DNA from: Gammaproteobacteria bacterium
GTDB lineage: Bacteria > Pseudomonadota > Gammaproteobacteria > Steroidobacterales > Steroidobacteraceae
Reading direction: 5' to 3'
Length of the DNA: 34,963 nucleotides
Assembly: GCA_003134045.1 (NCBI GenBank)
Contig: PLAH01000048.1
Span: 1-34,963, forward strand
Shown: positions 13,418 through 30,069 of the stretch, piece after piece
How the letters are laid out: each line of letters opens with the position of its first letter
How positions within the stretch are numbered: the first letter of the stretch is position 1
Notes under the pieces: generated by a model
What the model saw: only the letters and a program-made list of their open reading frames with translations
What the model was told of the DNA's origin: nothing
Databases searched by the model: none
Program-made: the position numbers and the translations under genes

Positions 13418-13990
13418 TCACTCGGCGGATATCCGTCGCACGAATTGGTTCAGCGCCGGTCTGCCGTCTTCCCAAATCGTAAACGGCGTATCCAAGGACT
13501 CCTGCGGCATCTGCAAAATGAGCGTCCTGCTGGCGGCGATGAAACGCAATGTCGCCAGATCGATCGCATAAGCGCGCGTAAGCGGCGCGCCGTGATGCGG
13601 CACGTATAGGTCGCCACCCGAATCCAGGTTCACCGGCAAGGATTCCAACGGCTGTAGATTCAATTCCCTGCCCTCGCTCAGCAATCGCATCGCACCTTCA
13701 TTGGATTGAGGTCGCGACAACATGCGGCTATCCACCGTCGACCAGCGATAGAGCAGCAAGTAATCTTTGAACGTGCCCGAGTGGTCGACTTCGACGGCGA
13801 CCAGGGTCGCATAGTCGCGTGCGTAGGCAGCGACGTCGTTGCGATCGCGCGCGAACACGATCGGCTTCGATACCACCGTCAGGGTGTTGCCGGTGCGCTC
13901 ATCGAATATCTCGCGTCCGGGCGCAGAAGGAGTGCCGCTGCAGGCGCACAGCGCCTGCACCATCAGCGTAAACATCCAAAGACGACGCAT
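13418..13990 (-). CDS. Small lipoprotein at the end of the cytochrome operon
   Basis: The 190-residue protein has a short signal peptide with lipobox LCAC (Cys17), so it should be membrane-anchored in the cell envelope. No cysteine pairs, heme motifs or known domain are visible. The mature part is mixed alpha/beta in look, with GNTLTVVSKPIVFARDRN near the start and DLATLRFIAASRTLILQM near the end. It starts nine bases after the beta-barrel gene stops, so it is the last gene of the minus-strand cytochrome operon. A role in assembly or stabilisation of the outer-membrane complex is a guess from position only. Confidence 0.75.
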   Translation of the reverse strand: MRRLWMFTLMVQALCACSGTPSAPGREIFDERTGNTLTVVSKPIVFARDRNDVAAYARDYATLVAVEVDHSGTFKDYLLLYRWSTVDSRMLSRPQSNEGAMRLLSEGRELNLQPLESLPVNLDSGGDLYVPHHGAPLTRAYAIDLATLRFIAASRTLILQMPQESLDTPFTIWEDGRPALNQFVRRISAE

Positions 13991-13999
13991 GGGAGGGCG

Positions 14000-16459
14000 C
14001 TAAAAGCGCAACCGGTAGGTGGCGGAGACATAGAGATTACGTTGTTCAAGCGAACTCATCTCCAGTGTCCCGGCGAGATTCGGCAGCTGCTGCTGCGCCT
14101 GCTGTCGCTGCAGCTGGTAGCCGGCGATGACTTCGAATATTTGCCTGAGGCTGACCCAATCGGCACGCACCTCCGGCAGATACAGGGTTTGCCTGCCGCC
14201 GAGTTGCGGGTCGTCCAGTCGCGCCACGTTGAAGCGCGGACCGAGGCGCCAGGCGCCCGCGACCGGGAAGCGGGCATCCCAGGTCAGGGTGGTGCTGCGC
14301 GAACTCGGCGAGTCGTCGATGCGCACGCCGAAGATGTGCAAGTCGCTGGCGCGCAGCAGGCTGGAACCGGCGAGCTGCAGACTGGCATCCTTGTCCAGTC
14401 CCGTCGAGGGGGTCGCGGGCACGCCGCCCGACGCGGGTGTGGAACCCAGGCGCAATGCTGCGAGATCCGCCATCACCTGCCACCGCTCGCCCAGCGACCG
14501 GCTCACCGACAGCACGACGGTATCGCTCTGGGCAGTGCGATCGAGCGCCAGCTGTTTCAGCCGCGCCGGCGCAACTGAGGCCTGCAGTGCGCGCAGATCC
14601 AAGGCCGACTGGCCGATGAGCACGTCGTTCAACTCCAGCAACGGGCTGTGGCGATGGTCCAGGTTGACGCCGAATATCCAATGTTCGCCGATTCTGAAGT
14701 TGCCGATCAGCGTGGCCGAGTTCAGTTGCTGAAAGTAGATGTCGTAATCGGCCAGCGCGATGGCCGTAAGCCCGGGTCGGGAGAAGCGAGTTTGAAAGCC
14801 GATGGAGCGCCGATCCGTGAGACCCTCTTCGGTCTCGTTGAACAGATACGCATCCAGCACCAGCGACAAGAACGGGCTGTACTCGGCGCCGACGCTTTCG
14901 AATTGCTGGTTCAGGGAAAATCCGGAATAGCTGGTGTATGCGGGGTAGCCCCCCGCCACGCTCACGGAAAACCGGGAATTGATTTCATAGCCCATCGACA
15001 ACCCGTCGAATAGGCCAATGATGCCTTGGCTCGCCAGCGTCTGTCGGCCGACGCGGCCGCTCAAACCCCACGAGCGGTCGGTCAGTTCGGCGTATGCCGC
15101 GGTGGTGCGATCCTGGCTGCCGCCGGGTGTGTTCGCCGAATTGTGCGTGTAGCCTGCGTCCACGCGGCCGGTGAAATCGTAACGCGAGCCGCGGTCTCGC
15201 ACCAATAGGTCGCCGTACACCAGCGCGGCGCCGACGCTGGTGGTGCTGGTCGTGGTTCCGGCGCTCACCGTTTGCCCCTTGTCGTATTGATATCCGAGCG
15301 CCGTGCTTCCAGCCATGGTCCAGCCGCCGGCCGGCGCCGCGCCGCTTTCAAACATGCGCGGCGCGATGGAGGCGGCGGCGAGCGCCTGCAGCCGCCGGCG
15401 CACACGCTCAGCACCCGCGCCTTGCGGGTAGCGCTGCAAATAGGCCTGGTATTCGGCCTTGGCCTGCGCCAACTGGCCGGCGCGTTCGCGCACCAGTCCA
15501 AGCAATTCCTGGGCCTCGGCGCGCGCCGGGTACTCCGGTTGGTGCACCAGCCGGCTCAACAGTTCCACGGCCTCCGGGTACCGATGCTGCTCCAGGTCGG
15601 CGCGAGCAGCCGCGAGAAGTTTGCCGCGTTCCTCCGCCGTCAGGGGCGGATCGGTCGGTGGCGGGGCGGCGGCCGGCACGCCGGCATGCTCGCTGGGCGC
15701 GAGATCTCCCTGCTCGTCATTGACCGCGATCCAAGCGCGCGGATACTTGCCGAGTGCGACGTTGAGCATACGCTCCGCCTCCGCGTGCGTTGCAAAAGGG
15801 CCGAGACGCAGCCGATACCAGTGCTCGCCGTCGAGATCGATCTGCGACTCGTAGGCCTGAGTATTGTAGGCGAGCGCTGCTGCGGCAAGCGCCTCGCGCT
15901 CGAATTTCTGGCGCGACGAATCGAGGTTCACCGCATAGGTCTCGGTGTCGGCTGGTTCCAGCACCGCGGCGCTGCCTTTGCGCTGCGGCTCGATGTGGAA
16001 CAATCTCAGGCGCAGGCCCGCGGCGTTGTTGGTCGGCGCGATGACGAAATCCATGGCCTGGGACCAGTCGAGTTCCAAGGTCACTTCGCCGGGCGCCACC
16101 GACTCGAGGCGCGCGGCCGTGATCAAGTCCCCGCCGCCGCCGATCTGCGGGAATTCCGGCGGCACGTTGCCGAGCAACGTGCCGCAGTCCGGCCCCAAGC
16201 GCAAAGTGATGCGCGTGCTCGCGCCGTGGCTGACCGGCGTGTTGTTCAGGTAGCGCACCGTACAGGCGAACTGCACCAGAATGTTGGTGTGGTCGTCGTG
16301 CAAATCGGCATCGATGAGCTGCACCAGCGGCCCGCTGAGTGCACCGAGCGCCGTCGCGGCGGCCGCGCAGAACGAGGCGCCGCTCACGGCCAGCAACGCG
16401 GTCATGGCAAACCGCGATCGCGCACCTGCCGACGCCGTCGAGGAATCTGGAATGTTCAT
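14000..16459 (-). CDS. Outer-membrane beta-barrel protein with SPOR and TPR regions
   Basis: The 819-residue protein has a probable signal region (residues 1-40) and an AMIN-like beta domain (about 45-165). A SPOR-like domain follows (about 175-250, with GEHWYRLRLGPFATHAEAERML), then TPR helices (about 273-360). From about 375 to the end come alternating amphipathic strands typical of a large barrel, finishing ATYRLRF with a terminal aromatic as in BAM substrates. SPOR domains usually bind peptidoglycan. Its ATG overlaps the stop of the 46-heme gene (ATGA), so the two are coupled. By position it could play the role MtrB plays in Mtr systems, a sheath carrying heme protein through the outer membrane, but I see no sequence similarity to MtrB. 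Confidence 0.75.
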   Translation of the reverse strand: MNIPDSSTASAGARSRFAMTALLAVSGASFCAAAATALGALSGPLVQLIDADLHDDHTNILVQFACTVRYLNNTPVSHGASTRITLRLGPDCGTLLGNVPPEFPQIGGGGDLITAARLESVAPGEVTLELDWSQAMDFVIAPTNNAAGLRLRLFHIEPQRKGSAAVLEPADTETYAVNLDSSRQKFEREALAAAALAYNTQAYESQIDLDGEHWYRLRLGPFATHAEAERMLNVALGKYPRAWIAVNDEQGDLAPSEHAGVPAAAPPPTDPPLTAEERGKLLAAARADLEQHRYPEAVELLSRLVHQPEYPARAEAQELLGLVRERAGQLAQAKAEYQAYLQRYPQGAGAERVRRRLQALAAASIAPRMFESGAAPAGGWTMAGSTALGYQYDKGQTVSAGTTTSTTSVGAALVYGDLLVRDRGSRYDFTGRVDAGYTHNSANTPGGSQDRTTAAYAELTDRSWGLSGRVGRQTLASQGIIGLFDGLSMGYEINSRFSVSVAGGYPAYTSYSGFSLNQQFESVGAEYSPFLSLVLDAYLFNETEEGLTDRRSIGFQTRFSRPGLTAIALADYDIYFQQLNSATLIGNFRIGEHWIFGVNLDHRHSPLLELNDVLIGQSALDLRALQASVAPARLKQLALDRTAQSDTVVLSVSRSLGERWQVMADLAALRLGSTPASGGVPATPSTGLDKDASLQLAGSSLLRASDLHIFGVRIDDSPSSRSTTLTWDARFPVAGAWRLGPRFNVARLDDPQLGGRQTLYLPEVRADWVSLRQIFEVIAGYQLQRQQAQQQLPNLAGTLEMSSLEQRNLYVSATYRLRF

Positions 16460-19400
16460 TTGATCGGCTGCTTCTGCGGCAACGGCCTCGAGGGAGCTTT
16501 GGGCGCAAGCACGGTCCAGGACTGCGTGCTGTGGCAGGTTGCGCAGTCCTGTGCGGATGTCGGGTGATTGGCTTGCTTGCCGATGGCGGCAACGCCGTTA
16601 TGGCAGCTCGAGCAGCTCGCCGACAGACCGGCGTGGCTGAACGTCGCCGCCGTCCAGGAGATCGTTCCGTGGCAGGTGCTGCAGTCCTGCGAACTCGCGA
16701 TGTGCCGCAGCGGCTTGCCGGCCGCGATCACGCCGTTGTGACAGCCGGCGCACGGACCGGACACGCCTTGGTGGTCGAAGCGCGCCGGCAGCCAAGCCGT
16801 CGTGATGTGGCAATTCTGGCAAGCATTATTGCTGCCGATATGCGCGCCGCCCTTGCCGCTCGCCAGTACGCCATTGTGGCAGCTGAAACAATTGGCGGTT
16901 ACGCCGGCATGCGACACGGGCGCGGCGGGGGCGCCGGATGTTGCGACCGGGGCAGGGGCGCTGCCACCCGCGGCCGAGGCACCGGGCGATGGCGCACCCG
17001 CGACCGGCGCCGTCACCACGTTCGTGACCACGCCGCGCGATACGGTTTGAGTAATGGTCGTCCTTTTGATGGCGGCGTTTCCGTCCCAATTGTTCGAGCT
17101 GTGGCAACCGCTGCAGTCCTGGCCGACGTGATGGCCCTTCGGCCGGGTGGTCAGATTGTTCACGCCATAGAACTTCAAGGTCGAGGCGTCGTGGCAGGCG
17201 TCGCAGGTTTTGCCGATCACCGCGAACATCAACGTGTGCTTGGCGGCGCTCATGGCGGTGCCGCTGAACGAGGTGAAGCTCACGGCGTGGCAGTCCTCGC
17301 ACGGTGTGGCGCCGGTGGGAATGTGCACCGGCGAGAGCACGGCATCCTTGGGCGTGTAATTGGGATAGAAAACGGGCGGCGTCGCCGACGGCGCGCCGTG
17401 ACAGGTAATGCAGCCGCCGCTGATACCCGTGTGCAGGACCGCATTCGTGGCCAGCGTGGCGATCGAGTAGTCGGCGGGCGCGGTGGTATGACACAGCGTA
17501 CAGGCGCTGTTGGCGGGATTTGGCATATGGCCCGAGGGCAGCGCCGTACTGTTCCAATTCGCCGTCGTGTGGCAGCCGCTGCAGTCGCCGGTCGACATGC
17601 TGCCGGAGGTGTGGTCGGCGGGACGACCTTGCAACCCCGGGCTCGCCGCGCCCAGGTAGAACGAGAGGCCCTTCTCGTGGCAGGTATCGCAGGCGGCCGG
17701 CACGAACGCGTGCTTCGCCTGGGTCATGTTCATCGGACCGAAGGTACCGGCCGCGTAGGTGCTCGACGCGTGGCAGGAGCCGCAGTCGGTGCCCGCGTTA
17801 TACGGAATGTGCGATGGCCCGAGCACGGCATCCTTCGGCGTGAAATTGTTGTACCAGGTGAGCGCCGTGGTGCCGCCGTGGCACTGGCCGCAGCCGCTGG
17901 TAATGCCGCTGTGCAGTACCGCGTTGGCGGCGAGTGTGGTGTAGTTCGCGGGTGCCGCGGTGTGGCAGGTGGCGCACGCGGTTCCCGCCGGGTTCGGCAT
18001 ATGGCCCGCGGGCAGCGCCGTGCTGTTCCAATTCGCCGTGGTGTGGCAGCCGCTGCAGTCGGCGGGTGCCGCCATGGTGCCGCTGTGATCGGTTGGCCGC
18101 CCCTGCAGCCCCGGGCTCGCCGCGCCCATGTAAAACGACAGACCGGCTTCGTGACATCCATTGCAGGTGCTGCCGACGCCCGCGTGAGTGGCCTGGGTCA
18201 TGTTCATGGGCCCGAAACCGCCCACGACATAGTTGGCCGTATGGCAGGCGCTGCAGTCCTCGCCGGTGAAGGCGGGGATGTGCGGCGGCGACAGTGAGGC
18301 GGCGGCCTTTGGGTTGTCGTTGTTGTTGTAGAAAGTGAGCTGCGTGCCACCGCCGTGACACTGGGCGCAGCCATTGGTGATGCCGGTATGCAGCACGGCA
18401 ACCGCGGCCAACTGTGCATAACTGGTCGGGTCCGAGGTCAACGTACCGGTATGGCAGACCGAGCAGGTCTGTGTACCCGGGATCGGCATGTGGCCATTGG
18501 GCAGCGTGCTCGGTGTCGTCCACGTGGTCGTGTTGTGGCACAGCGAGCAATCCCCGGTCGCCTGGCTCGCGGGGCTCGGATTCGATACGTGCGTCGGCGG
18601 GCGCCCCTGCAGGGCGAGCGCCACGCCGGGGTAGAACGTCAGGGCCGCCTCGTGGCAAGTGTCGCAGGTGGTCGGGACGAACGCGTGCTTAGCGGCGCTC
18701 ATGGCGGTACTGCCAAAACCGCCTACGGTGAAATTCGTCGTGTGGCAGGAACTGCAGTCGACGCCGTTCGAATACGGGATGTGCGCCGGCGTCAGCACCG
18801 CCGCCTTGGGGTTGTCGTTGTTGTCGTAGAAGGTGAGTTGTCCCGCGGGGCTGCCGTGACACTGGCTACAGTTGATGCTGATGCCGGCGTGCAGGACCGA
18901 AATACCGGCAAGTGTCGCGTAGCTCGCCAAGGTCGAACCGATGGCGGTATGGCACGTCGAGCAGGTCTGGTTGCCGGGGTTCGGCATATGGCCCGCCGGC
19001 ATCAGGTTGCTGGTCCAGTCGGTGGTGGTGTGGCAGCCGGCGCAATCGCCGCTCGCTTGCTGCCCACCATTGGCGATGTGATCGGCCGGGCGCCCTTGCA
19101 GGTTCAGCGCTGCGCCGGGATAGAAAGTCAGGCGGGCCTCGTGGCAGGTGTCGCAGGAGGAAGGGACGAAGGCATGTTTGGCAGCGTTCATGGCGGTGCC
19201 CCCGAAGCCGCCGGTCGCGAAGTTGGCAGTGGCGTGACAGGAGCTGCAGTCGGTTCCCGATAGATAGGGAATGTGCGACGGCGTGAGCAGGGCATCCTTA
19301 GGCGTGAAATTATTTGCCCAGGTGAGCGCGGCGATGTTGTTGCCGTGACAGAGTCCGCAGTTGCCGGTGATGCCGGTATGCAGCACGGTATTCGCCGCCA

Positions 19401-20865
19401 GAGTCGTCGGCGTGTAGTCGCTCGGCGCCGCGGTGTGGCACTGGGCGCACTTCAAGCTGCTCGGATTCGGCATGTGACCGGCCGGCATGGCGGTACTGTT
19501 CCAGTCGGTGGTTTCGTGGCAGCCGGAACAATCGCCGCTCGCCATGTTGGCATCGCCGCTCGCGACGTGATCTGCCGGACGCGCCTGCAAAGCAGTGCCG
19601 CTGCCTACGTAGAAGCTCTTGCCGGTGTCGTGACAGGTATCGCAGGCGGTGGAGACGAACGCGTGCTTGGCGGCGCTCATCGCGGTGGCCGGACCGAAGC
19701 CCCCTGTTCGATAGGCGGCACCATGGCAGGCGCTGCAGTCGGTACCGACCAAGATCGGGATATGCGGCGGCGATAGCGCCGCTGCGTGGTACGGCGAGAC
19801 ACCCAAGGTTGACATCGGAATGTAAGGCGCCGGTACGCCGGCGAAGGTCTCACGGGCGTGACACAGAAGGCAATTGCTCACCGACAGGCCCGAATGCAGC
19901 GTGGCGATGCTGGCGGCGAGCATCGTCCAAGTTTCGGCGCTCGGCGTATTGCCATGGCAAATGCCGCAATCGATGGCCGAGGGAATTGGCGGTACGTGAT
20001 TGGCCGGTTGCCCGGATACGAATCCCGTCGAAATCTTCACCGCGCCGCTATGGCAGGTCGCACAGGTGGCGACCGTCATTTGCGTGTGATCGAAGATCGA
20101 CGGTGTCCAGTTGGGTGTCTTCGTGCCGATGCCGGCGGTATGGCAGTTCTCGCACGAATTGGTGGTGGGCATGTGATTGCCCTGCTTGCCCACCGCTTTG
20201 GTGCCGTTGTGGCAGCTCACGCAGTCCGTGGTAATACCGGTGTGGTCGAAGCTCGCGCCCAACCAGTTGTTCGTCAAATGGCAATCGCCGCACTCGAGAT
20301 TGGTGGCAATGTGGTTCGCCGGCTTGCCGGCGGCCTGCGTTCCGTTGTGGCAAATGATGCAAAAGCCGGCGACCGCCAACGGAATTTGCGAATGATCGAC
20401 GCTGGCGGCCGGATTCCAGGTAAGCACCGAGTGGCAGGCGGCGCAGTTCTGACTGGTTGCCGGATGCGTCGGGCCCTCTCCCTGGGCGATTACGCCGTTG
20501 TGGCAAGTGGCGCAGCTGCCCATTACCTCGCCATGGTCGAAGTGCACGTCGGGACGGAACGCGATGGTGTTATGGCAGGCGGCGCAGTTGTTGCTGCTCG
20601 GGATATGCGTGGTGGTCTTGGGCGTCGCGTCGTAAGGTGAGCCTTGGATGTGACAGGTGCCACAGTTGCGCGGCGTGCCTTTGAAGACGGCATTCAAGTG
20701 GCATGACTCGCACGGCAGGTCGCGGTGCACGCCGTCGAGCTCGAATCCGGTCGATAAATGATCGAAGGGCACCGTGATCGGCGGCGCCTTGTCGGCACCG
20801 CACGCCGGCAATGCCAGCAGCAGTGCGAACCCAGCGATCCATCCGTTGATGCTCCTTCGCCGCAT
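16456..20865 (-). CDS. Giant multiheme cytochrome c lipoprotein, 46 CXXCH motifs
   Basis: In this 1469-residue protein I count 46 CXXCH heme-binding motifs, one per about 32 residues. The signal peptide has lipobox LPAC with Cys22 followed by Gly-Ala, which does not signal inner-membrane retention, so an outer-membrane lipoprotein is likely. Layout: hemes 1-12 with a two-heme repeat (CHNG..GK..H..C..CH..W..FDH); hemes 13-40 in five-heme modules of about 160 residues; an Ala/Pro/Gly-rich linker with no hemes (about 1268-1317); then hemes 41-46, which return to the two-heme repeat. Many additional His residues (HAFVP, HIP, GHMP) could be distal ligands. Role inferred: long-range electron transfer across or outside the outer membrane. 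It starts six bases after the 21-heme gene ends. Confidence 0.93.
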   Translation of the reverse strand: MRRRSINGWIAGFALLLALPACGADKAPPITVPFDHLSTGFELDGVHRDLPCESCHLNAVFKGTPRNCGTCHIQGSPYDATPKTTTHIPSSNNCAACHNTIAFRPDVHFDHGEVMGSCATCHNGVIAQGEGPTHPATSQNCAACHSVLTWNPAASVDHSQIPLAVAGFCIICHNGTQAAGKPANHIATNLECGDCHLTNNWLGASFDHTGITTDCVSCHNGTKAVGKQGNHMPTTNSCENCHTAGIGTKTPNWTPSIFDHTQMTVATCATCHSGAVKISTGFVSGQPANHVPPIPSAIDCGICHGNTPSAETWTMLAASIATLHSGLSVSNCLLCHARETFAGVPAPYIPMSTLGVSPYHAAALSPPHIPILVGTDCSACHGAAYRTGGFGPATAMSAAKHAFVSTACDTCHDTGKSFYVGSGTALQARPADHVASGDANMASGDCSGCHETTDWNSTAMPAGHMPNPSSLKCAQCHTAAPSDYTPTTLAANTVLHTGITGNCGLCHGNNIAALTWANNFTPKDALLTPSHIPYLSGTDCSSCHATANFATGGFGGTAMNAAKHAFVPSSCDTCHEARLTFYPGAALNLQGRPADHIANGGQQASGDCAGCHTTTDWTSNLMPAGHMPNPGNQTCSTCHTAIGSTLASYATLAGISVLHAGISINCSQCHGSPAGQLTFYDNNDNPKAAVLTPAHIPYSNGVDCSSCHTTNFTVGGFGSTAMSAAKHAFVPTTCDTCHEAALTFYPGVALALQGRPPTHVSNPSPASQATGDCSLCHNTTTWTTPSTLPNGHMPIPGTQTCSVCHTGTLTSDPTSYAQLAAVAVLHTGITNGCAQCHGGGTQLTFYNNNDNPKAAASLSPPHIPAFTGEDCSACHTANYVVGGFGPMNMTQATHAGVGSTCNGCHEAGLSFYMGAASPGLQGRPTDHSGTMAAPADCSGCHTTANWNSTALPAGHMPNPAGTACATCHTAAPANYTTLAANAVLHSGITSGCGQCHGGTTALTWYNNFTPKDAVLGPSHIPYNAGTDCGSCHASSTYAAGTFGPMNMTQAKHAFVPAACDTCHEKGLSFYLGAASPGLQGRPADHTSGSMSTGDCSGCHTTANWNSTALPSGHMPNPANSACTLCHTTAPADYSIATLATNAVLHTGISGGCITCHGAPSATPPVFYPNYTPKDAVLSPVHIPTGATPCEDCHAVSFTSFSGTAMSAAKHTLMFAVIGKTCDACHDASTLKFYGVNNLTTRPKGHHVGQDCSGCHSSNNWDGNAAIKRTTITQTVSRGVVTNVVTAPVAGAPSPGASAAGGSAPAPVATSGAPAAPVSHAGVTANCFSCHNGVLASGKGGAHIGSNNACQNCHITTAWLPARFDHQGVSGPCAGCHNGVIAAGKPLRHIASSQDCSTCHGTISWTAATFSHAGLSASCSSCHNGVAAIGKQANHPTSAQDCATCHSTQSWTVLAPKAPSRPLPQKQPIK
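17280..19740 (-). repeat. Tandem five-heme modules inside the giant cytochrome gene
   Basis: The coding sequence repeats with a period of about 470-505 bp. Each module encodes CS(A/S)CH, then GGFG..AMSAAKHAFV, CDTCHE, LQGRP(A/T)DH, CSGCHTT(A/T)(N/D)W, GHMPNP, C..CHTA, VLHTGI and C.QCHG. The five full modules cover hemes 13-17, 18-22, 23-27, 28-32 and 33-37, and a shorter last one covers hemes 38-40. Confidence 0.85.
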
Positions 20866-20871
20866 GTCGAC

Positions 20872-22443: not shown

Positions 22444-22452
22444 GCCCGTCCT

Positions 22453-23328: not shown

Positions 23329-24143
23329 GAGATCACTTCGTCAATCAGGATTTTCAGGGGATGGCGATCGGCGGGATTGATGACGCCGCTGCTGCCGCGT
23401 AGGTCGCCGCTTGCCGGCACTGCCTGACCGCTTTGCGAGATGCGGGCCTCGATGGTGACGCGGCCGGCGCTGGAGAGATTGCGGCCGGGCAGCATCGATT
23501 GAGAATCATCGAGCGTGAAAGTCACCGGCCACGCGCCGACGCTGCCGCGATAAACGGCCACCGGTGCGCCGGGAGAATCAACCGACTTGGCGACGATGAA
23601 CAACGTGCTGCCCGCGGGTACCTTGCCGCGCAACGCGTTCGACAGGGATACCTCACCGCTTACCGCCATGCCCGCCGCCGTCGGCGTCCCGCCAACCGGC
23701 AACTCGTGCTTGCGCGCCTGGGCGGCCGCATCGGCGCGTCCGAGGAATTCGTAGGACTTTGCCAGCAGCTCCCAATCATCGGGAGTGCCCCCGCCCTTGG
23801 CGAGCCGGGCTTCCAAAGACGCGAGCGCGCTTTGCATCGAGCCGGCAGCCGCGGTGCTGGCGGTGGGGGGCGCGACGCCGGGCGCTGCGGGCAGCACGGG
23901 AAGCACGGGAAGCGCGGGAAGCGCGGGAATCGCCGGAAGCATGGCGGACTGCACCAACTCCGGACGGCCGAGCCAGCGGTAAAGGGCGAGTGCAGCGACG
24001 ATCAGCAGCAAACCCGCGAGCGGTGCTTGCCAGGGCAGGGCGGGCAATGCCCCGAAGCGCGGGATGGTGCGTAGCCACGGCAGCAGCACGCAAAGTACCG
24101 CGACCGTGGTCATCATTCCTGTAAAAAACCAGAACAAGGGCAC
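23325..24143 (-). CDS. CcmI/CycH-like cytochrome c maturation protein
   Basis: The 272-residue protein has two N-terminal membrane segments (FWFFTGMMTTVAVLCVLLPW and PLAGLLLIVAALALYRWLG) and a Pro/Ala-rich linker. A TPR-like helix pair follows, then the CcmI C-terminal periplasmic domain with VPAGSTLFIVAKS, LDDSQSMLPGRNLSSAGRVTIEARIS and SGQAVPASGDLRGSSG. CcmI presents apocytochrome CXXCH segments to the heme ligation machinery. I start at GTG 24143, six bases after GAGGAG; the in-frame ATG at 24149 touches that site and is less likely. It is the first gene of the six-gene minus-strand set. No other ccm genes are nearby, so it would work with a general maturation system and may be specialised for the very heme-rich products of this operon. 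Confidence 0.8.
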   Translation of the reverse strand: MPLFWFFTGMMTTVAVLCVLLPWLRTIPRFGALPALPWQAPLAGLLLIVAALALYRWLGRPELVQSAMLPAIPALPALPVLPVLPAAPGVAPPTASTAAAGSMQSALASLEARLAKGGGTPDDWELLAKSYEFLGRADAAAQARKHELPVGGTPTAAGMAVSGEVSLSNALRGKVPAGSTLFIVAKSVDSPGAPVAVYRGSVGAWPVTFTLDDSQSMLPGRNLSSAGRVTIEARISQSGQAVPASGDLRGSSGVINPADRHPLKILIDEVIS

Positions 24144-24217
24144 GCGCATCTCCTCGCAGAATTCCGACGACTTACCTGGGGCGCCTTGCCCACGGGGCGG
24201 CAATCCCAGGCGTCTAT

Positions 24218-24232
24218 CTTTGCAATGCAAAG
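24218..24232. promoter_or_regulatory. Perfect palindrome in the CcmI-gene leader
   Basis: CTTTGCAATGCAAAG is a perfect 7-bp inverted repeat around one base, about 75 bases before the cytochrome operon start. It may be an operator for a dimeric regulator or part of the promoter region. Confidence 0.3.
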
Positions 24233-24299
24233 TATTGTAAAGGTGTTCCATCTGGTGGCGGAATGTGTGTGAAAAGCGACACCTGGCCGGCTCACCGTT

Positions 24300-24315
24300 T
24301 GTGATGACAATCACA
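24300..24315. promoter_or_regulatory. CRP/Clp-type binding site, perfect consensus
   Basis: TGTGATGACAATCACA matches TGTGA-N6-TCACA exactly. It lies in the 231-bp region between the divergent electron-transfer operons, 60 bases before the plus-strand start codon. The G in the half-site favours CRP/Clp over FNR (TTGAT). Confidence 0.65.
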
Positions 24316-24321
24316 GATCCA

Positions 24322-24337
24322 TGCGATTGTCATCACT
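24322..24337. promoter_or_regulatory. Second CRP-like site, imperfect
   Basis: TGCGATTGTCATCACT keeps TGCGA-N6-TCACT. Its centre is 22 bp from that of the first site, two DNA turns. GTGATGACAATC in the first and GATTGTCATCAC in the second are also a perfect 12-bp inverted repeat with a 12-base spacer. Confidence 0.45.
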
Positions 24338-24374
24338 AGCCTAGGGCGAGTCTTATGCTGGAGAGCGTCGGCAC

Positions 24375-25685
24375 ATGGAAATGATTTGGTCTCTTGCCCT
24401 GTATGCGCTGCCGCTGGGACTGTTCATCGGTGCGTATTTGTTGCGGCAACGGCGAGTGCACGCCAGGCACAAGCGTGCGCACGAGGAGTCGATCGCCGCC
24501 GGCTTGACCGAGCCGGCCTCGTTGCACCCGCTCATCGACCCAGCCAAGTGCTTAGCCTGCGGTGCGTGCGTCAAAGCCTGCCCCGAGCAGCCGCATCACC
24601 AAGTATTGGGTCTGATCGGCGGCAAAGCGGTGCTGGTGGGGCCCACCGATTGCATCGGTCACGGAGCCTGCAAGACAGTCTGTCCGTTCGACGCCATCAC
24701 GCTGGTGCTGGGAACCGAGCGGCGCGGCGTCGATATCCCGCTGCTCAAACCGAATTTCGAATCGAATGTGCCGGGAATCTACGTCGCCGGCGAATTGGGC
24801 GGCATGGGGCTCATCAAGAACGCGCTCAGTCAGGGCCAGCAAGCCCTGGAGGCAATCGTCAAGGCAGGTGTGAAACGCAGCGGAGTCTTGGACGTTCTTA
24901 TCGTCGGCGCCGGGCCCGCCGGCTTGGCTGCGAGTTTGGCGGCGAAGAAGGCCGGCCTTAAGTATCAGACCATCGAACAGGACTCCCTGGGCGGCGCGGT
25001 ATTTCAATACCCGCGCGGCAAGCTGGTCATGACGGCGCCCGTAGAGTTGCCGCTGCTCGGCAAGGTCCACTTCCGGCACACCTCCAAGGAAGCGCTGCTG
25101 AAATTCTGGACCGATGCCTGCTCACAGCATCGCTTGGCAATTCGGTATCAGGAACGGGCCGACCGCATCGAATTGCACGACGGTGTATTTCAGGTGACCG
25201 CTGGGCCGAGCAAGTACACGGCATGCGCCGTATTGTTGGCCATCGGCCGACGCGGTACGCCACGCAAGCTGGGCGTGCCGGGAGAGGAGTTGCCCAAGGT
25301 GGTGTACCGGCTCATCGACCCTGAACAATACCGGGGCAGGCAGGTCATGGTGGTCGGCGGCGGCGACAGCGCACTCGAAGCCGCCGCCAGCATCGCGGAA
25401 CTGGGCGATGCCGAGGTGATCCTCTCGTACCGCGGCGAAGCGTTCCAGCGCGCCAAACAGCTCAATCGACAGCGCGTCACCGAGGCCAGCGCACGGGGCA
25501 AGCTACAGGTGCTGCTCAACTCGCAAGTACGCGAAATTCAGGATGCCCAAGTTGTGCTGCAACACGCAGCAAAAACGCTAAAGGTCGGCAACGATGCAGT
25601 GATCGTGAGCGCCGGCGGCATACTGCCGAATGACTTCCTGCGCTCGATCGGCATCCAGGTGGAAACCAAGTACGGCACCGCATGA
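24375..25685 (+). CDS. Membrane-anchored ferredoxin/FAD/NAD(P) oxidoreductase (YpdA-like)
   Basis: The 436-residue protein has an N-terminal membrane helix (residues 2-23). A two-cluster ferredoxin domain follows: CLACGACVKACP with Cys59/62/65/69, and CIGHGACKTVCP with Cys93, His96, Cys99, Cys103. Next is an FAD-binding Rossmann motif (VLIVGAGPAGLAAS, about 174) and an NAD(P) motif (VMVVGGGDSALEAA, about 325). The flavoprotein part resembles thioredoxin reductase and YpdA folds but lacks a redox CXXC. With the helix in the inner membrane, the rest should face the cytoplasm. Likely role: passing electrons from NAD(P)H through FAD and Fe-S to the membrane cytochrome b encoded divergently. It starts 231 bases from the cytochrome operon and overlaps the ankyrin gene by four bases. 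Confidence 0.87.
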   Translation: MEMIWSLALYALPLGLFIGAYLLRQRRVHARHKRAHEESIAAGLTEPASLHPLIDPAKCLACGACVKACPEQPHHQVLGLIGGKAVLVGPTDCIGHGACKTVCPFDAITLVLGTERRGVDIPLLKPNFESNVPGIYVAGELGGMGLIKNALSQGQQALEAIVKAGVKRSGVLDVLIVGAGPAGLAASLAAKKAGLKYQTIEQDSLGGAVFQYPRGKLVMTAPVELPLLGKVHFRHTSKEALLKFWTDACSQHRLAIRYQERADRIELHDGVFQVTAGPSKYTACAVLLAIGRRGTPRKLGVPGEELPKVVYRLIDPEQYRGRQVMVVGGGDSALEAAASIAELGDAEVILSYRGEAFQRAKQLNRQRVTEASARGKLQVLLNSQVREIQDAQVVLQHAAKTLKVGNDAVIVSAGGILPNDFLRSIGIQVETKYGTA

Positions 25686-27661
25686 AACATCGTGTGAAAA
25701 GACCGCGAACGGCATTTGCGGCGGCGGCCTTCTCGCTAGCGCTCGCCTCCCTGGCCGCGGGCGCAGCGGTGCGTGGCGCCGATCCCGTCGAGCCGGCGCG
25801 CGCCGCACTGCGAACTTTGCAATTCGGCAAAGCGCTGCAATTGCTCGATTCCCTGTCGCACCGTAACGCCGAGGCTCAGTACCTGCTGGGCCTCATGTAT
25901 CTGAACGGCGTCGGCGTGGCGCCGGACGCGCCGCGCGCGCGCCGGCTGCTTACAGCGGCCGCCGAACAAGGCCACGCCATCGCCGCCTATGTACTGGCCG
26001 GCGAGCTGGTGCGCGACACCGCCGCGCCCCCGGATTCTTCGAATCGCTGGCTGGAGCGTTCCGCACGACTCGGCTACGGGCGCGCCGCCGAGGTGCTGAA
26101 AAGCGGCCGGCCGCTGTATGCAGCGGATTTCGCCGGCGCTACCGATCCTGCGCTGCTGGCCGCCTGGGCGATCGAATGCGCGCGCAAGGACAACGCCAAC
26201 GAACTGAGGCGGCTTGGCAAACCGGCCGCCACGGTACGCGACGCGTTCGGCCGCGAGCCGCTGTCGTACGCTGCCGCCGCCGGCAGCCTGGCCGCGGCGG
26301 CGGCGCTGATTGACGCCGGTGCGGATCCGCGTGCCGTCGATTCCGTGGGAACCAGCGCGCTCATGCTGGCGGCCGAGCGGCCAGAGCCGGACATGGTCGA
26401 TCTTCTGCTGAACCATGGAGCCGATGTGCAGAGTATCGATGCCGACGGACGCTCTGCCCTATTTTATGCGGCACGGGCGAGTCGCACCAACACGCTGCGC
26501 AGCTTGTTGCAGGCGGGCGCCAAGCTCGATGGGCGTGATTCGCGCAACTACAACGCCCTCGACGCGGCGTTGGCCGTCGGCGCCGACACCACGGCCGAGG
26601 AACTGCGCGCCGCCGGCGCGCGGTCGACGCTCAACCTGACGGTGGCGCAGCGACAGAGCCGTAAATTCGATCTCGCACACCCGGGCGACGTGTACCGCGG
26701 ATGGCCGCCGCTGGCACTGGCTGTGGCGCGCAACGATGCGCCGAGTGTGCAGCAGTTGCTCGATGCGGGCGCGGACGTGAAATTGCCGGTGCCGCAAGGC
26801 GATCCACTGCTCGTGGTAGCGGCCGACGCGGGTGCGTTGCCCTGCATCCGCATCCTGATCCTGCATGGCGCGGATGCCGCTGCCCCGGATCATGCTGGGC
26901 ACGGCGTACTGTGGCTCGCCGCAGTCCGCGGCGGTGGGCCGCTCATCAGTGCGCTGCTCGATGCGGGCATCAAGCCCGATACGCACACGAGAGACGAAGA
27001 GCCGCCGCTGCTCGCGGCGGTACGCGCCGGGCACGACGACATTGCCGCCGTATTGATCGACGCAGGGGCGGCCGTGGATGGCGTCGACGCGCTTGGCCGC
27101 ACGCCGTTGATGCTGGCGAGCGCCGGCAATCACCCGATGCTGGTCGAGGCGTTGCTGCATCAGCATGCGCGCGTCGACCCGAAGGACCGCCTCGGGCGCA
27201 CCGCCGTGTGGTACGCATCGCAGGCCGGCTCGGCCGCCGTCACGACGCTGCTGGCCGCGGGTGCAGACGTGACGACGCACGATTTGGCGGGCTTGACCGT
27301 ACTGCATGCGGCCGCCCTGCAGGGCGACGCGCAGGTGCTCGAGCCGCTGTTCAAGGCGCATGCCGCGATCAATGCTCGCAGCCGCAGCGGCGACAGCCCG
27401 TTGACGGTGGCGGCCGCTGCCGGACATACCGAGGTGGTGCGCGCCCTGTTGGCGCGTTCGCCGGACCTCGATATTCAAAACGGCGGCGGCGACACGGCCT
27501 TGATAGCCGCAAGCCGCAACGGCTTCAACGATATTTGCCGTCTATTGGTTTCGGCCGGCGCCAACCGGGCCCTGCGCAACCGCGACGGTACTTCGGCGGC
27601 GGACGCCGCGGCAAGCCGTGGATTCACGGCGCTCGCCCAAGATATTTCGAGGAAGACATGA
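25682..27661 (+). CDS. Exported Sel1/ankyrin-repeat protein
   Basis: The 659-residue protein has a signal peptide (hydrophobic residues 12-30, ending near GAAVRGAD) and a Sel1-like unit (AEAQYLLGLMYLNGVGVAPD..RARRLLTAAAEQGH). From about residue 180 to the end it is a long series of roughly 33-residue ankyrin repeats with the GADV...G.TAL..AA pattern. Ankyrin and Sel1 repeats bind proteins, so it may be a periplasmic scaffold. It overlaps the flavoprotein gene (ATGA) and is followed by two further exported proteins. No enzymatic motif is seen. Its tie to electron transfer rests only on the operon. Confidence 0.85.
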   Translation: MKHRVKRPRTAFAAAAFSLALASLAAGAAVRGADPVEPARAALRTLQFGKALQLLDSLSHRNAEAQYLLGLMYLNGVGVAPDAPRARRLLTAAAEQGHAIAAYVLAGELVRDTAAPPDSSNRWLERSARLGYGRAAEVLKSGRPLYAADFAGATDPALLAAWAIECARKDNANELRRLGKPAATVRDAFGREPLSYAAAAGSLAAAAALIDAGADPRAVDSVGTSALMLAAERPEPDMVDLLLNHGADVQSIDADGRSALFYAARASRTNTLRSLLQAGAKLDGRDSRNYNALDAALAVGADTTAEELRAAGARSTLNLTVAQRQSRKFDLAHPGDVYRGWPPLALAVARNDAPSVQQLLDAGADVKLPVPQGDPLLVVAADAGALPCIRILILHGADAAAPDHAGHGVLWLAAVRGGGPLISALLDAGIKPDTHTRDEEPPLLAAVRAGHDDIAAVLIDAGAAVDGVDALGRTPLMLASAGNHPMLVEALLHQHARVDPKDRLGRTAVWYASQAGSAAVTTLLAAGADVTTHDLAGLTVLHAAALQGDAQVLEPLFKAHAAINARSRSGDSPLTVAAAAGHTEVVRALLARSPDLDIQNGGGDTALIAASRNGFNDICRLLVSAGANRALRNRDGTSAADAAASRGFTALAQDISRKT

Positions 27662-27707
27662 CGTGCCTGCGATGCCGAGCGCTCGCCAAAGATTAGCCGC
27701 GGTTGTC

Positions 27708-28178
27708 ATGAACTTGGCCACCTTCAGAGTCGCGGCGTGGCGCCCCTGCATCGGCCTGTCGATGTTGTGGGCGTTGCAAGCTCACGCCGCTCTCGGCGGC
27801 GGCGATTCCAGCATTCGGGCGGATCAGTCCGAATTGCATGGCGTGCTCACGATTACCCCGCGCCGCAACTACGAACTGCGCGAAATCACCAACGAATCTG
27901 GGATGGTCGTGCGCGAGTTTGTCAATCGCTCGGGCCTCGTGTTCGCGCTCGCTTGGTCCGGTCCGGCAATGCCGAACCTGCGGCAATTGCTCGGCGCACA
28001 CTATGAAGCTTACGCGCAATCGTTGGCGCGCCTATCACGCCCGGGTCTCCACCGCAGCGTGCGTGTCGAGACGCCGCATCTGGTGGTGGAGAATGCCGGT
28101 CACCTTCGCGCCTACGCGGGCTACGGTTTGCTCACCGATCTGCTGCCGGCCGGCATGTCGCCGACAGAGGTGCGCTAG
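27708..28178 (+). CDS. DUF2844 family exported protein
   Basis: The 156-residue protein has a signal peptide (WRPCIGLSMLWALQAHA) and then matches the DUF2844 pattern: ALGGGDSSIRADQ, YELREITNESGMVVREFVN, GLVFALAWSGPAMPNLRQLLG. The function of the family is unknown. It is often found next to DUF3443 genes, as here, with three bases between. I start at ATG 27708; an ATG at 27672 would add 12 residues, and neither has a good ribosome binding site. It lies 46 bases after the ankyrin gene and is probably part of the same operon. Confidence 0.82.
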   Translation: MNLATFRVAAWRPCIGLSMLWALQAHAALGGGDSSIRADQSELHGVLTITPRRNYELREITNESGMVVREFVNRSGLVFALAWSGPAMPNLRQLLGAHYEAYAQSLARLSRPGLHRSVRVETPHLVVENAGHLRAYAGYGLLTDLLPAGMSPTEVR

Positions 28179-28181
28179 AGC

Positions 28182-29411
28182 ATGAACACTGTTTATCGGC
28201 TCGCAGCGCTCTTACTCGCGAGCTTGGTCGCCGGCTGCTTCGGCGGCAATGGAACGGGCACTCTACCTGCGGCGCCAGCGCCCACTGCGAATGTCGTCAC
28301 GGTAACGGTCGATTCGGGTCCGGAGGCGGCCAGCGGCCAAATCAATCATGCCTATGTAACCGTCAAGGTGTGCGTCCCCTCGAGCCAGACCTGCGCCAGC
28401 ATCGATCACGTTCTGCTCGACACCGGTTCGAACGGATTGCGCCTGGTCGGGTCGGTGCTTGCATCACAGTCCCTCACGTTGCCCAATGAAACTGATGAGC
28501 AGGGACAAACCATCGAGGAGTGCGTCAGTTTCACCGGCGGTCAAACCTGGGGCGCGATTGCAACCGCGGATGTTTACCTCGCTGGCGAGAAAGCTGTGAA
28601 AATCCCGGTACAAGTGCTGGACGACACCAACGCGGGCGCGCCGCCGCCGGCCGCTTGCGGCGCGAACGGCACGCTCATCGATACGGTGGCGGGCTTCGGT
28701 GCCAATGGAGTTCTCGGGGTCGGGGTATTTGCACAGGATTGCGGCGAAGCGTGCGTTTCCCCGGCCACGCCGCTGCCCGTATATTATGGCTGCAGCGCGG
28801 CGGGTACCTGCAGCGCCGAAAATGCGGCCTTGGCGCAGCAGGTCGCCAACGTCGTGGCGCAGTTTGCCGCTGACAATAATGGCGTCATCATCAACCTGCC
28901 GAACCTGGTGAATGCCAACGGCGATGCCAGCGTACAAGGTGAGCTGATTTTCGGCCTCTCGACGCAAGCCGACAACATGCTGCCGGTATCCGGGTTGACC
29001 GTGCTCGGCGCCGACGCGAAAGGCAATTTCACGGCAACCTACAATGGCGCTGCCACTGCGCTGCCGGCGTTCATTGACTCCGGCACGGATGCCTACGCGT
29101 TCAATGATTCGAGCATCGCCACGTGTTCGACCGGCGCCTTCGTCGGCTATTACTGTCCGGCAGTGGCGCCGGCGACGGCGTTCACGGTGAACACCGGGGT
29201 CGGCATGTACACCGCTTCCAACACGGTGAATTTCGCTATCGCCGATCCCAACACCTTCGTGGTCGGCGCCGCCGCCTTCACGGATCTCGCCGGTGGCGGC
29301 GGCTCAACCACCTTCACCTGGGGTATGCCTTTTTTTTACGGGCGGCAGGTTTATTTCGGCATCGATCAGCGCGTCAGCGGAGCTTACACCGGCCCCTTCT
29401 ACGCGTATTAG
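28182..29411 (+). CDS. DUF3443 family lipoprotein with pepsin-like motifs
   Basis: The 409-residue protein has a lipoprotein signal with Cys19 (LVAGC), then the DUF3443 pattern: NVVTVTVDSGP, HAYVTVKVCVPSSQTC, HVLLDTGSNGLRLVG. The DTGSNGLRL segment (about residue 80) and FIDSGTDAYAF (about 299) look like the two active-site loops of a pepsin-type aspartic protease, placed about 220 residues apart as in bilobed enzymes. Protease activity is not shown for this family to my knowledge. It is the last gene of the plus-strand set and pairs with the DUF2844 gene. It contains many Cys residues, which may form disulfides. Confidence 0.83.
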   Translation: MNTVYRLAALLLASLVAGCFGGNGTGTLPAAPAPTANVVTVTVDSGPEAASGQINHAYVTVKVCVPSSQTCASIDHVLLDTGSNGLRLVGSVLASQSLTLPNETDEQGQTIEECVSFTGGQTWGAIATADVYLAGEKAVKIPVQVLDDTNAGAPPPAACGANGTLIDTVAGFGANGVLGVGVFAQDCGEACVSPATPLPVYYGCSAAGTCSAENAALAQQVANVVAQFAADNNGVIINLPNLVNANGDASVQGELIFGLSTQADNMLPVSGLTVLGADAKGNFTATYNGAATALPAFIDSGTDAYAFNDSSIATCSTGAFVGYYCPAVAPATAFTVNTGVGMYTASNTVNFAIADPNTFVVGAAAFTDLAGGGGSTTFTWGMPFFYGRQVYFGIDQRVSGAYTGPFYAY

Positions 29412-29953: not shown

Positions 29954-30030
29954 GCGCCCGTAGCTCAGCTGGATAGAGCGCCTGGCTACGAACCAGGAGG
30001 TCGGGGATTCGAATTCCTCCGGGCGCACCA
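29954..30030 (+). tRNA. tRNA-Arg(ACG)
   Basis: The 77-base gene has acceptor stem GCGCCCG pairing with CGGGCGC, discriminator A and an encoded CCA. The anticodon stem CCTGG/CCAGG closes loop CTACGAA with anticodon ACG (29988-29990), and the T arm carries GATTCGAATTC. The ACG anticodon is normally edited to ICG and reads CGU, CGC and CGA. TACAAT at 29940-29945 could be a -10 box, without a clear -35. In E. coli this tRNA (argV) follows serV directly. Here an integrase remnant begins 40 bases after its 3' end, as usual for tRNA-targeting elements. Confidence 0.97.
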
Positions 30031-30069
30031 CAATTGCTTCGTCAAATCAGTCATTTAGCGTGCCTGACC

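What the first reader, a model, noticed from the sequence alone, without database searches (positions are those of the whole stretch)
13418..29411. Two divergent operons that may form a complete NAD(P)H-to-cell-surface electron conduit
The locus encodes a membrane-anchored FAD/Fe-S/NAD(P) protein, cytochrome b, 21-heme periplasmic cytochrome, 46-heme lipoprotein cytochrome, outer-membrane barrel, a CcmI-like maturation factor, a Sel1/ankyrin protein and three envelope proteins without known function. That is 67 c-type heme sites from two genes. The set covers each cellular compartment in order but resembles neither Mtr nor the OmcS/OmcZ gene sets as I know them. This is the best candidate for an undescribed system in the window.
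Basis: partly seen in the sequence, partly recalled or inferred. Interest (0 to 1): 0.88.

Follow-up and report, generated by a model that had tools for sequence, protein, structure and literature searches.

The report
NAD(P)H-linked 67-heme electron conduit (PCC3)
These genes make up a predicted porin-cytochrome cluster of the already described but functionally untested PCC3 type, with 67 heme-binding motifs in two proteins, and its usual companion, an iron-sulfur flavoprotein, is predicted to pass electrons from NAD(P)H inside the cell into that wire, so that the cell would likely discharge them at its surface.

Summary
In detail: 46 + 21 = 67 CXXCH motifs in two genes, a five-helix membrane protein, a predicted barrel protein, a CcmI-like paralogue, a Sel1/ankyrin protein and a membrane-anchored Fe-S/FAD/NAD(P) protein, in two divergent operons. 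The "undescribed system" reading does not: the left operon is PCC3, a porin-cytochrome cluster named by He et al. 2017 (PMC5566968). It has the porin, both cytochromes and the ~300-aa inner-membrane protein (IMP) with SGXXG and two WX3HX13H motifs, and one relative lies in Bradyrhizobium sp. STM 3843, which that paper lists. What seems new is the flavoprotein's link to PCC3. It is in the same stretch as the IMP gene in 73 of 74 relatives whose contigs reach far enough; in 369 genomes of the class, 42 have a strong IMP match, 43 a strong flavoprotein match, 41 both, sometimes unlinked. Six PCC3 papers, seen as passages and term searches, do not mention it; their figures and supplements were not seen. 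I infer that NAD(P)H electrons pass through FAD, two Fe-S sites and two b hemes to the wire, likely outward. Direction is unproven; the genome also has a RuBisCO-family gene. DUF2844, DUF3443 and the small lipoprotein are not core.

The parts
13418..13990 (-). small predicted lipoprotein, no known family; frequent but not universal PCC3 neighbour
   Evidence: no Pfam/NCBIfam hit; 25 of 39 loci that reach 9 kb beyond the IMP; lipobox in 21 of 26 relatives by a simple rule
14000..16459 (-). PCC3 porin: signal peptide, beta domain, SPOR domain, TPR, then a predicted 22-strand outer-membrane barrel
   Evidence: SPOR E 1e-4, TPR E 9e-6 but below Pfam's cut-off; AlphaFold2 mean pLDDT 81.6, pTM 0.56; the 50 Foldseek rows shown are outer-membrane barrels, at low TM-scores (0.12-0.28 by query length); 37 of 39 loci that reach 9 kb
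16456..20865 (-). extracellular multiheme cytochrome (location inferred), 46 CXXCH
   Evidence: Cytochrome_C7 E 7e-68; 43 complete relatives have 5-73 motifs, median 29
20872..22443 (-). periplasmic multiheme cytochrome (location inferred), 21 CXXCH
   Evidence: complete with exactly 21 motifs in 66 of 80 loci; 5 with 18, 2 with 24, 1 with 22, 6 cut by a contig end
22453..23328 (-). inner-membrane protein (IMP), predicted di-heme cytochrome b
   Evidence: five hydrophobic segments; WX3HX13H at 84 and 266; SGVAG at 125; both motifs in 35 of 35 relatives listed
23325..24314 (-). CcmI-like protein with Ig_CycH domain, a second copy beside the canonical one; probable start near 24146
   Evidence: PF23892 E 7.6e-30; the only other genome match is at G000:C183:6353, next to a ccmH-like reading frame (my reading)
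24147..24374 (.). divergent promoter region with a Crp-type palindrome TGTGA-N6-TCACA at 24300
   Evidence: only exact match in the window; 17 of 72 relatives have a site with at most one mismatch upstream of the flavoprotein against 143 of 2547 control stretches, controls mostly coding
24375..25685 (+). membrane-anchored 2[4Fe-4S]-FAD-NAD(P) protein, apparently circularly permuted; near-universal PCC3 partner
   Evidence: co-occurrence
25682..27661 (+). predicted exported Sel1-ankyrin protein, frequent partner
   Evidence: 51 of 80 loci, 48 of 66 that reach 5 kb upstream; in 48 of those 51 it is on the flavoprotein's strand and within 500 bases of it
27618..28178 (+). DUF2844 protein; local neighbour, not part of PCC3
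   Evidence: PF11005 E 1.6e-35; 2 of 80 loci
28182..29411 (+). DUF3443 protein; local neighbour, not part of PCC3
   Evidence: PF11925 E 5.6e-111; 6 of 80 loci; 14 of 147 genomes of the order, 8 of them without a strong IMP

Best explanation
The locus encodes a PCC3-type porin-cytochrome cluster together with an Fe-S/FAD/NAD(P) protein that likely feeds it electrons from cytoplasmic NAD(P)H, which would leave through the membrane and the 21-motif and 46-motif cytochromes to acceptors outside the cell. Shown: gene content, heme-motif counts, IMP motifs, domain content, and near-complete co-occurrence of flavoprotein and IMP over the class. Inferred: (1) the flavoprotein's redox domain is cytoplasmic, held by its one N-terminal helix; (2) NAD(P)H reduces FAD, FAD reduces the two ferredoxin clusters, and these reduce two b hemes of the IMP, so that flavoprotein plus IMP act like a split NADPH oxidase; (3) the 21-heme protein spans the periplasm, the SPOR/TPR-barrel protein carries electrons through wall and outer membrane, and the 46-heme protein lies outside; (4) net flow is outward, since both the NAD(P)H potential and the membrane potential would push electrons that way. 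The CcmI-like protein would be a dedicated heme-attachment chaperone; the Sel1-ankyrin protein would be a periplasmic assembly factor.
For: PCC3 identity: all four genes and the IMP signature of He et al.; a relative in Bradyrhizobium sp. STM 3843 (L122), named as PCC3-containing in that paper. Flavoprotein coupling: present in 73 of 74 named loci with at least 1.5 kb upstream of the IMP; of the 74 loci of 80 that have it, 68 have it divergent and within 3 kb of the IMP. Genome level, class: strong IMP (E <= 1e-40) in 42 and strong flavoprotein (E <= 1e-100) in 43 of 369, both in 41; order: 30 and 29 of 147, both in 28. IMP carriers of the class fall in 33 families. In G395 and G650 the flavoprotein is on another contig with other neighbours; in G425, G620, G560, G568 and G188 it sits at the porin end. 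Chemistry: seven of nine Cys lie in the ferredoxin part and no TrxR-type CXXC follows, which fits an electron carrier rather than a disulfide reductase; the best solved relatives are YpdA and thioredoxin or ferredoxin-NADP reductases (one search agrees, on a weak model). The IMP motif is, per He et al., shared with the ferric reductase/NADPH oxidase domain. In strain ES-1 both PCC3 clusters were down on Fe(II) (PMC8788666, passages), which is not what an Fe(II) oxidase predicts.
Against: No experiment. Direction is not set by sequence. The host genome has a gene of the RuBisCO large-chain family (contig C127; that family includes RuBisCO-like proteins; the assembly is 6.3% contaminated, but the same-genus genome G058 has one too), and 7 of 30 strong IMP carriers in the order have such a gene against 12 of 117 others, so electron uptake cannot be excluded. 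G113 and G121 (100 and 98% complete) have IMP and cytochromes without the flavoprotein, and the genome of locus L141 (2.2 Mb, completeness not given) shows none either, so the flavoprotein is not indispensable. The IMP does not match Pfam's ferric reductase model: not among the hits of 23 relatives at E <= 1. He et al. propose a quinone link for the IMP. The flavoprotein model is poor (mean pLDDT 66), and contact with the IMP was not modelled. The E-value cuts were chosen after seeing the score gaps; weaker matches were dropped (IMP 19 of 61 in the class, 2 of 32 in the order; flavoprotein, searched at E <= 1e-60, 2 of 45 and 1 of 30); only the best few candidates per genome were scored; related genomes are not independent.
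Confidence: 0.55

Rival explanations
1. PCC3 as first proposed: an electron-uptake conduit from Fe(II) or other outside donors to the quinone pool through the IMP; the flavoprotein is a side branch or runs towards NAD(P)+ reduction.
For: He et al. model electron flow from an outside donor to quinone; PCC3 occurs in Fe(II) oxidizers; the inner-membrane gene of PCC3 copy 2 was up in Fe(II)-oxidizing cells of strain CL21 (PMC12442390, passages); the host genome has a RuBisCO-family gene.
Against: Both PCC3 clusters of ES-1 were down on Fe(II), and in its proteomes on Fe(II) citrate-type and magnetite growth the listed PCC3 extracellular cytochrome was not detected (table passage); moving electrons inward from Fe(II) to NAD(P)+ is uphill in potential and against the membrane potential (established bioenergetics); a side branch would not be expected to co-occur in 41 of 42 carriers.
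Confidence: 0.28
2. The flavoprotein is a maturation helper: it supplies reductant to keep apocytochrome cysteines or heme reduced for a cluster that needs 67 thioether hemes, alongside the CcmI-like protein.
For: Relatives are thiol-system reductases (YpdA, TrxR); a CcmI-like gene is often in the same stretch (52 of 80 at a loose 40-bit cut).
Against: No CXXC after the ferredoxin part; a cytoplasmic ferredoxin part would be on the wrong side for periplasmic thiols; the CcmI-like gene is less constant than the flavoprotein.
Confidence: 0.1
3. The right-hand operon is an unrelated neighbour kept by chance or by a shared promoter region.
For: True for DUF2844 and DUF3443.
Against: Flavoprotein and IMP co-occur across 33 families of the class, with a second arrangement and unlinked copies.
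Confidence: 0.03

Closest known systems
PCC3 (He et al. 2017, PMC5566968; abstract and passages seen)
   Same: porin, many-heme extracellular cytochrome, 21-heme periplasmic cytochrome, 5-helix IMP with SGXXG and two WX3HX13H
   Different: published accounts, as far as seen, give four genes and a quinone link; here a NAD(P) flavoprotein, a Sel1-ankyrin protein, a CcmI-like protein and a lipoprotein belong to or accompany the cluster
MtrCAB / MtoAB / PioAB
   Same: logic: inner-membrane partner, porin, periplasmic and outer cytochrome
   Different: MtrA- and MtrC-type models match the 46-heme protein only below their cut-offs, and no MtrB-type hit is listed for the barrel; the barrel carries SPOR and TPR parts; the inner-membrane partner is not CymA (recalled as a c-type tetraheme quinol oxidase)
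NADPH oxidase / ferric reductase (FRD) family
   Same: two HX13H heme pairs in the membrane next to an NAD(P)H-FAD donor (He et al. note the shared heme motif)
   Different: separate polypeptides; the donor is of thioredoxin-reductase type with ferredoxin clusters; no Pfam ferric-reductase hit
YpdA / thioredoxin reductase family
   Same: FAD and NAD(P) domains
   Different: adds an anchor helix and ferredoxin part, lacks CXXC, and the usual C-terminal FAD segment appears to stand before the first Rossmann motif

Membership tests
PCC3 porin-cytochrome complex | porin-type outer-membrane barrel gene in the cluster | tested here: met
   22-strand barrel in an AlphaFold2 model; barrel hits in PDB at low TM-scores; prediction only
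PCC3 porin-cytochrome complex | extracellular multiheme cytochrome, published median 34 hemes | tested here: met
   46 CXXCH; extracellular location itself is inferred
PCC3 porin-cytochrome complex | periplasmic multiheme cytochrome, published median 21 hemes | tested here: met
   21 CXXCH, signal peptide-like segment 10-28; location inferred
PCC3 porin-cytochrome complex | about 300-aa IMP, five helices, SGXXG on helix 4, WX3HX13H on helices 3 and 5 | tested here: met
   291 aa, five hydrophobic segments, both motifs
PCC3 porin-cytochrome complex | homology to a published PCC3 cluster | tested here: met
   IMP, 18-motif cytochrome and flavoprotein genes at a Bradyrhizobium sp. STM 3843 locus (L122), an organism named; that its published gene ids are these was not checked; ES-1 and Leptothrix are not among the 80 of 356 matches kept
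PCC3 porin-cytochrome complex | electron transfer across the envelope | not testable with these tools
   also untested in the passages seen
MtrCAB/MtoAB | decaheme MtrA/DmsE-type and OmcA/MtrC-type cytochromes | tested here: not met
   46-heme protein: TIGR03508 94.5 bits against a cut-off of 192.2; TIGR03507 59.5 against 209.3; 21-heme protein: neither listed
NADPH oxidase / ferric reductase | two HX13H pairs in transmembrane helices | tested here: met
NADPH oxidase / ferric reductase | match to the ferric reductase domain model (PF01794) | tested here: not met
   absent from the hits of 23 relatives at E <= 1
thioredoxin reductase | redox-active CXXC in the NADPH domain | tested here: not met
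   Cys only at 59, 62, 65, 69, 93, 99, 103, 249, 284
OmcS/OmcZ nanowires | six- or eight-heme filament-forming cytochrome (recalled) | not tested
   heme counts differ; filament formation cannot be tested here

The most novel reading that the evidence does not exclude
PCC3 is not primarily a quinone-linked Fe(II)-oxidation conduit but a bacterial analogue of an NADPH oxidase with a reach beyond the cell: a thioredoxin-reductase-type flavoprotein with a histidine-containing Fe-S site passes NAD(P)H electrons straight to membrane b hemes and on through a 67-heme wire, giving many proteobacteria a direct valve from cytoplasmic reductant to the outside.
Probability: 0.38. Interest if true: 0.82.

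Novelty: new variant of a known kind. Interest (0 to 1): 0.6.

Why it matters
PCC3 is widespread, can hold very large heme counts, and has no tested function; the papers seen treat it as a possible Fe(II) oxidase. A near-constant NAD(P)H flavoprotein partner changes the question: it names a cytoplasmic donor, predicts outward flow, and gives a one-gene deletion that would separate the models. Known conduits such as Mtr draw on quinol (recalled), so a direct NAD(P)H link would be a different way of wiring metabolism to the outside.

Tried and rejected
DUF2844/DUF3443 as parts of the conduit: rejected (2 and 6 of 80 loci; 8 of 14 DUF3443 genomes lack a strong IMP). The 46-heme protein as a conserved lipoprotein: not supported (3 of 43; a first, stricter selection gave 4 of 30). 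Plasmid-borne relatives: one weak hit, Emticicia, 26.5% identity. Solved structures by sequence: none for IMP (E <= 1) or 21-heme protein (E <= 0.001). Sigma-70 promoter and terminator scans: no more than shuffles. FAD-IMP gene fusions: none among the ORFs of 118 loci, some of which are the same genomes. RuBisCO as a direction test: inconclusive and partly against outward flow. The flavoprotein model is too poor to prove circular permutation; the case rests on sequence: with the N-side segment appended behind the Rossmann part, scores to solved chains rise over the Rossmann part alone for most shared chains I compared (5ygq 52.6 to 64.8, 1vdc 28.4 to 39.3, 8c16 42.0 to 50.4, 1fl2 38.7 to 46.4, 7a7b 83.2 to 88.1 bits), while some hardly move or drop (2zbw 71.7 to 71.9, 5uth 60.4 to 59.5). 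Class-level exceptions were opened: the contigs of G560, G486 and G573 end or break in the cluster, so these are probably assembly gaps; the order-level exceptions G113 and G121 are not explained away. Phylum search: 11 of 249 genomes match the IMP profile; 7 of these are weak matches, and in the three opened (L085-L087) a short IMP-like protein stands by a 7-12-motif cytochrome with no porin or flavoprotein match, like the 'other' group of He et al.; the flavoprotein was not searched in that set. CcmI counts use a loose 40-bit cut and are soft.
Full report
What is there. Two divergent gene sets face away from about 24.1-24.4 kb. The minus-strand set reads: CcmI-like protein, inner-membrane protein (IMP), 21-heme cytochrome, 46-heme cytochrome, SPOR/TPR-barrel protein, small lipoprotein. 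The plus-strand set reads: Fe-S/FAD/NAD(P) protein, Sel1-ankyrin protein, DUF2844, DUF3443. The heme-motif counts, 46 and 21, are exact, which is 31.9 and 24.9 residues per motif. The genome is a 5.5 Mb draft, 96.8% complete and 6.3% contaminated. Among the 120 hits listed for the IMP and for the flavoprotein, the organism names that are visible are Steroidobacteraceae.

It is PCC3. He et al. 2017 (PMC5566968; abstract, outline and passages seen) define PCC3 as a porin, an extracellular cytochrome (median 34 motifs), a periplasmic cytochrome (median 21) and a roughly 300-residue IMP with five helices, SGXXG on the fourth and WX3HX13H on the third and fifth. The window's IMP has 291 residues, five hydrophobic segments, W84...H102, SGVAG at 125 and W266...H284. 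All 35 relatives listed have both motifs. One of the 80 named relatives is Bradyrhizobium sp. STM 3843 (L122), which the paper names.

How constant are the parts? A profile of diverse IMPs found 356 relatives in named genomes; the best 80 were kept and analysed. One isolate gave two of them (L090, L093), and several are the same genomes as in the handle-based searches. Flavoprotein (>= 200 bits): 74 of 80 loci, and 73 of the 74 with at least 1.5 kb upstream of the IMP; of the 74 loci that have it, 68 have it divergent and within 3 kb. Sel1-ankyrin: 51 of 80 (48 of 66 with 5 kb upstream), in 48 of the 51 within 500 bases of the flavoprotein and on its strand. Barrel: 37 of 39 with 9 kb downstream. 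Lipoprotein: 25 of the same 39. CcmI-like: 52 of 80 at a loose cut. DUF3443: 6 of 80. DUF2844: 2 of 80. The periplasmic cytochrome is complete with exactly 21 motifs in 66 of 80 loci (5 with 18, 2 with 24, 1 with 22, 6 cut by a contig end), while 43 complete extracellular cytochromes range from 5 to 73 motifs, median 29; 25 more run into a contig end. A fixed inner wire and a free outer one is a pattern the Gallionellaceae survey also reports (21-27 against 10-35; PMC10734462, passages).

Flavoprotein and IMP go together. In 369 genomes of the class, 42 have a strong IMP match (E <= 1e-40), 43 a strong flavoprotein match (E <= 1e-100) and 41 have both. In 147 genomes of the order the numbers are 30, 29 and 28. 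Weaker matches were dropped: IMP 19 of 61 in the class and 2 of 32 in the order; flavoprotein, searched only at E <= 1e-60, 2 of 45 and 1 of 30. The cuts were set after seeing the gaps between strong and weak scores, only a few best candidates per genome were scored, and related genomes are not independent, so the Fisher values should not be taken literally; but the class carriers belong to 33 families. I opened the class-level exceptions: the contigs of G560, G486 and G573 end or break in the cluster. In G425, G620, G560, G568 and G188 the flavoprotein sits at the porin end, and in G395 and G650 it is on another contig with other neighbours. Linkage alone therefore does not explain the pairing. 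Exceptions remain: G113 and G121 in the order (100 and 98% complete), and the 2.2 Mb genome of locus L141, completeness not given.

What the flavoprotein is. One N-terminal helix (residues 4-22) is followed by two ferredoxin motifs and a thioredoxin-reductase-type FAD/NAD(P) part (Foldseek agrees, but on a weak model). In 41 aligned sequences Cys59, Cys65, Cys69, Cys93, His96, Cys99 and Cys103 are invariant and Cys62 nearly so: the second site reads C-X2-H-X2-C-X3-CP. A histidine takes the place of one cysteine, so a His-ligated 4Fe-4S or a 3Fe-4S cluster is possible; this is inference. No CXXC follows, so it should not be a TrxR-type disulfide reductase. The segment PNFESNVPGIYVAGELGGMGLIKNA at 126-150 resembles the C-terminal FAD segment of that family but stands before the first Rossmann motif. 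With that segment appended behind the Rossmann part, most solved chains I compared match better than with the Rossmann part alone (5ygq 52.6 to 64.8 bits, 1vdc 28.4 to 39.3, 1fl2 38.7 to 46.4, 7a7b 83.2 to 88.1), though some do not (2zbw 71.7 to 71.9, 5uth 60.4 to 59.5). That suggests a circular permutation. The structure model (mean pLDDT 66) is too weak to settle it.

How it most likely works. NAD(P)H, FAD, two Fe-S clusters, two b hemes of the IMP, 21-heme protein, porin-held contact, 46-heme protein, outside acceptor. The gene content, motifs and co-occurrence are shown; every electron step is inferred. He et al. already compared the IMP's histidine pattern with ferric reductases and NADPH oxidases but proposed quinone exchange. 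A partner with NAD(P)H and FAD domains would supply the missing donor half of such an oxidase, as a separate protein. Outward flow is favoured because NAD(P)H is a strong reductant and the membrane potential pulls electrons outward. In ES-1 both PCC3 clusters were down on Fe(II) (PMC8788666, passages). Against this: in strain CL21 the inner-membrane gene of one PCC3 copy rose with Fe(II)-oxidizing ability (PMC12442390, passages), and the host genome has a RuBisCO-family gene, as do 7 of 30 strong IMP carriers (the host included) and 12 of 117 other genomes of the order (the family includes RuBisCO-like proteins). Direction stays open.

The rest. The barrel model has 22 strands after a beta domain, SPOR and TPR; the 50 Foldseek rows shown are porins, ushers and other outer-membrane barrels at low TM-scores. 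SPOR domains bind peptidoglycan (recalled), so this protein may tie the wire to the wall. The CcmI-like gene is one of two matches in the genome; the other lies by a ccmH-like frame (my reading). A perfect Crp-type palindrome lies between the operons, and near matches are commoner there in relatives (17 of 72) than in control stretches (143 of 2547), although the controls are mostly coding.

Is the flavoprotein link in print? Searches for PCC3 gave the same six papers. Passages were seen and terms such as flavoprotein, pyridine nucleotide and ankyrin were searched in each (FAD in all but PMC12016527): none describes such a partner. Further searches (listings only, apart from passages of PMC12175321) showed none. 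PMC12175321 reports mtrA, mtrB and mtrC annotations in sediment Woeseiaceae; whether some of these are PCC3 was not checked. He et al. do mention other redox genes beside PCC4 and related IMPs. Figures and supplements were not available, and subscription papers are mostly missing from the library.

Verdict.

Noticed in passing
window 29954-30921: tRNA-Arg (acg) at 29954-30030 with an ORF at 30070-30921 on the other strand right after it that reads like a tyrosine recombinase (my reading, not searched): looks like the edge of an integrated element to the right of the cluster.
   Followed up: no
window 24300-24333: Crp-type palindrome TGTGATGACAATCACA inside a longer inverted repeat TGATGACAATC...GATTGTCATCA in the divergent promoter region.
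   Followed up: partly
24375-25685, residues 93-104: Second ferredoxin motif has an invariant histidine in place of one cysteine in 41 of 41 aligned sequences: possible His-ligated Fe-S cluster.
   Followed up: partly
24375-25685, residues 113-169: Apparent circular permutation of the thioredoxin-reductase fold.
   Followed up: partly
L071, L073 (G121, G113): PCC3 variant without the flavoprotein; the Sel1-ankyrin gene is followed by a large two-CXXCH protein and a 440-aa protein with a twin-arginine-like start.
   Followed up: no
L135, L140, L146: PCC3 variants with an added 5-motif cytochrome and a separate 26-motif cytochrome that has a clear lipobox.
   Followed up: no
G000:C127:262-1179: RuBisCO large-chain family gene in the window's genome.
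   Followed up: partly
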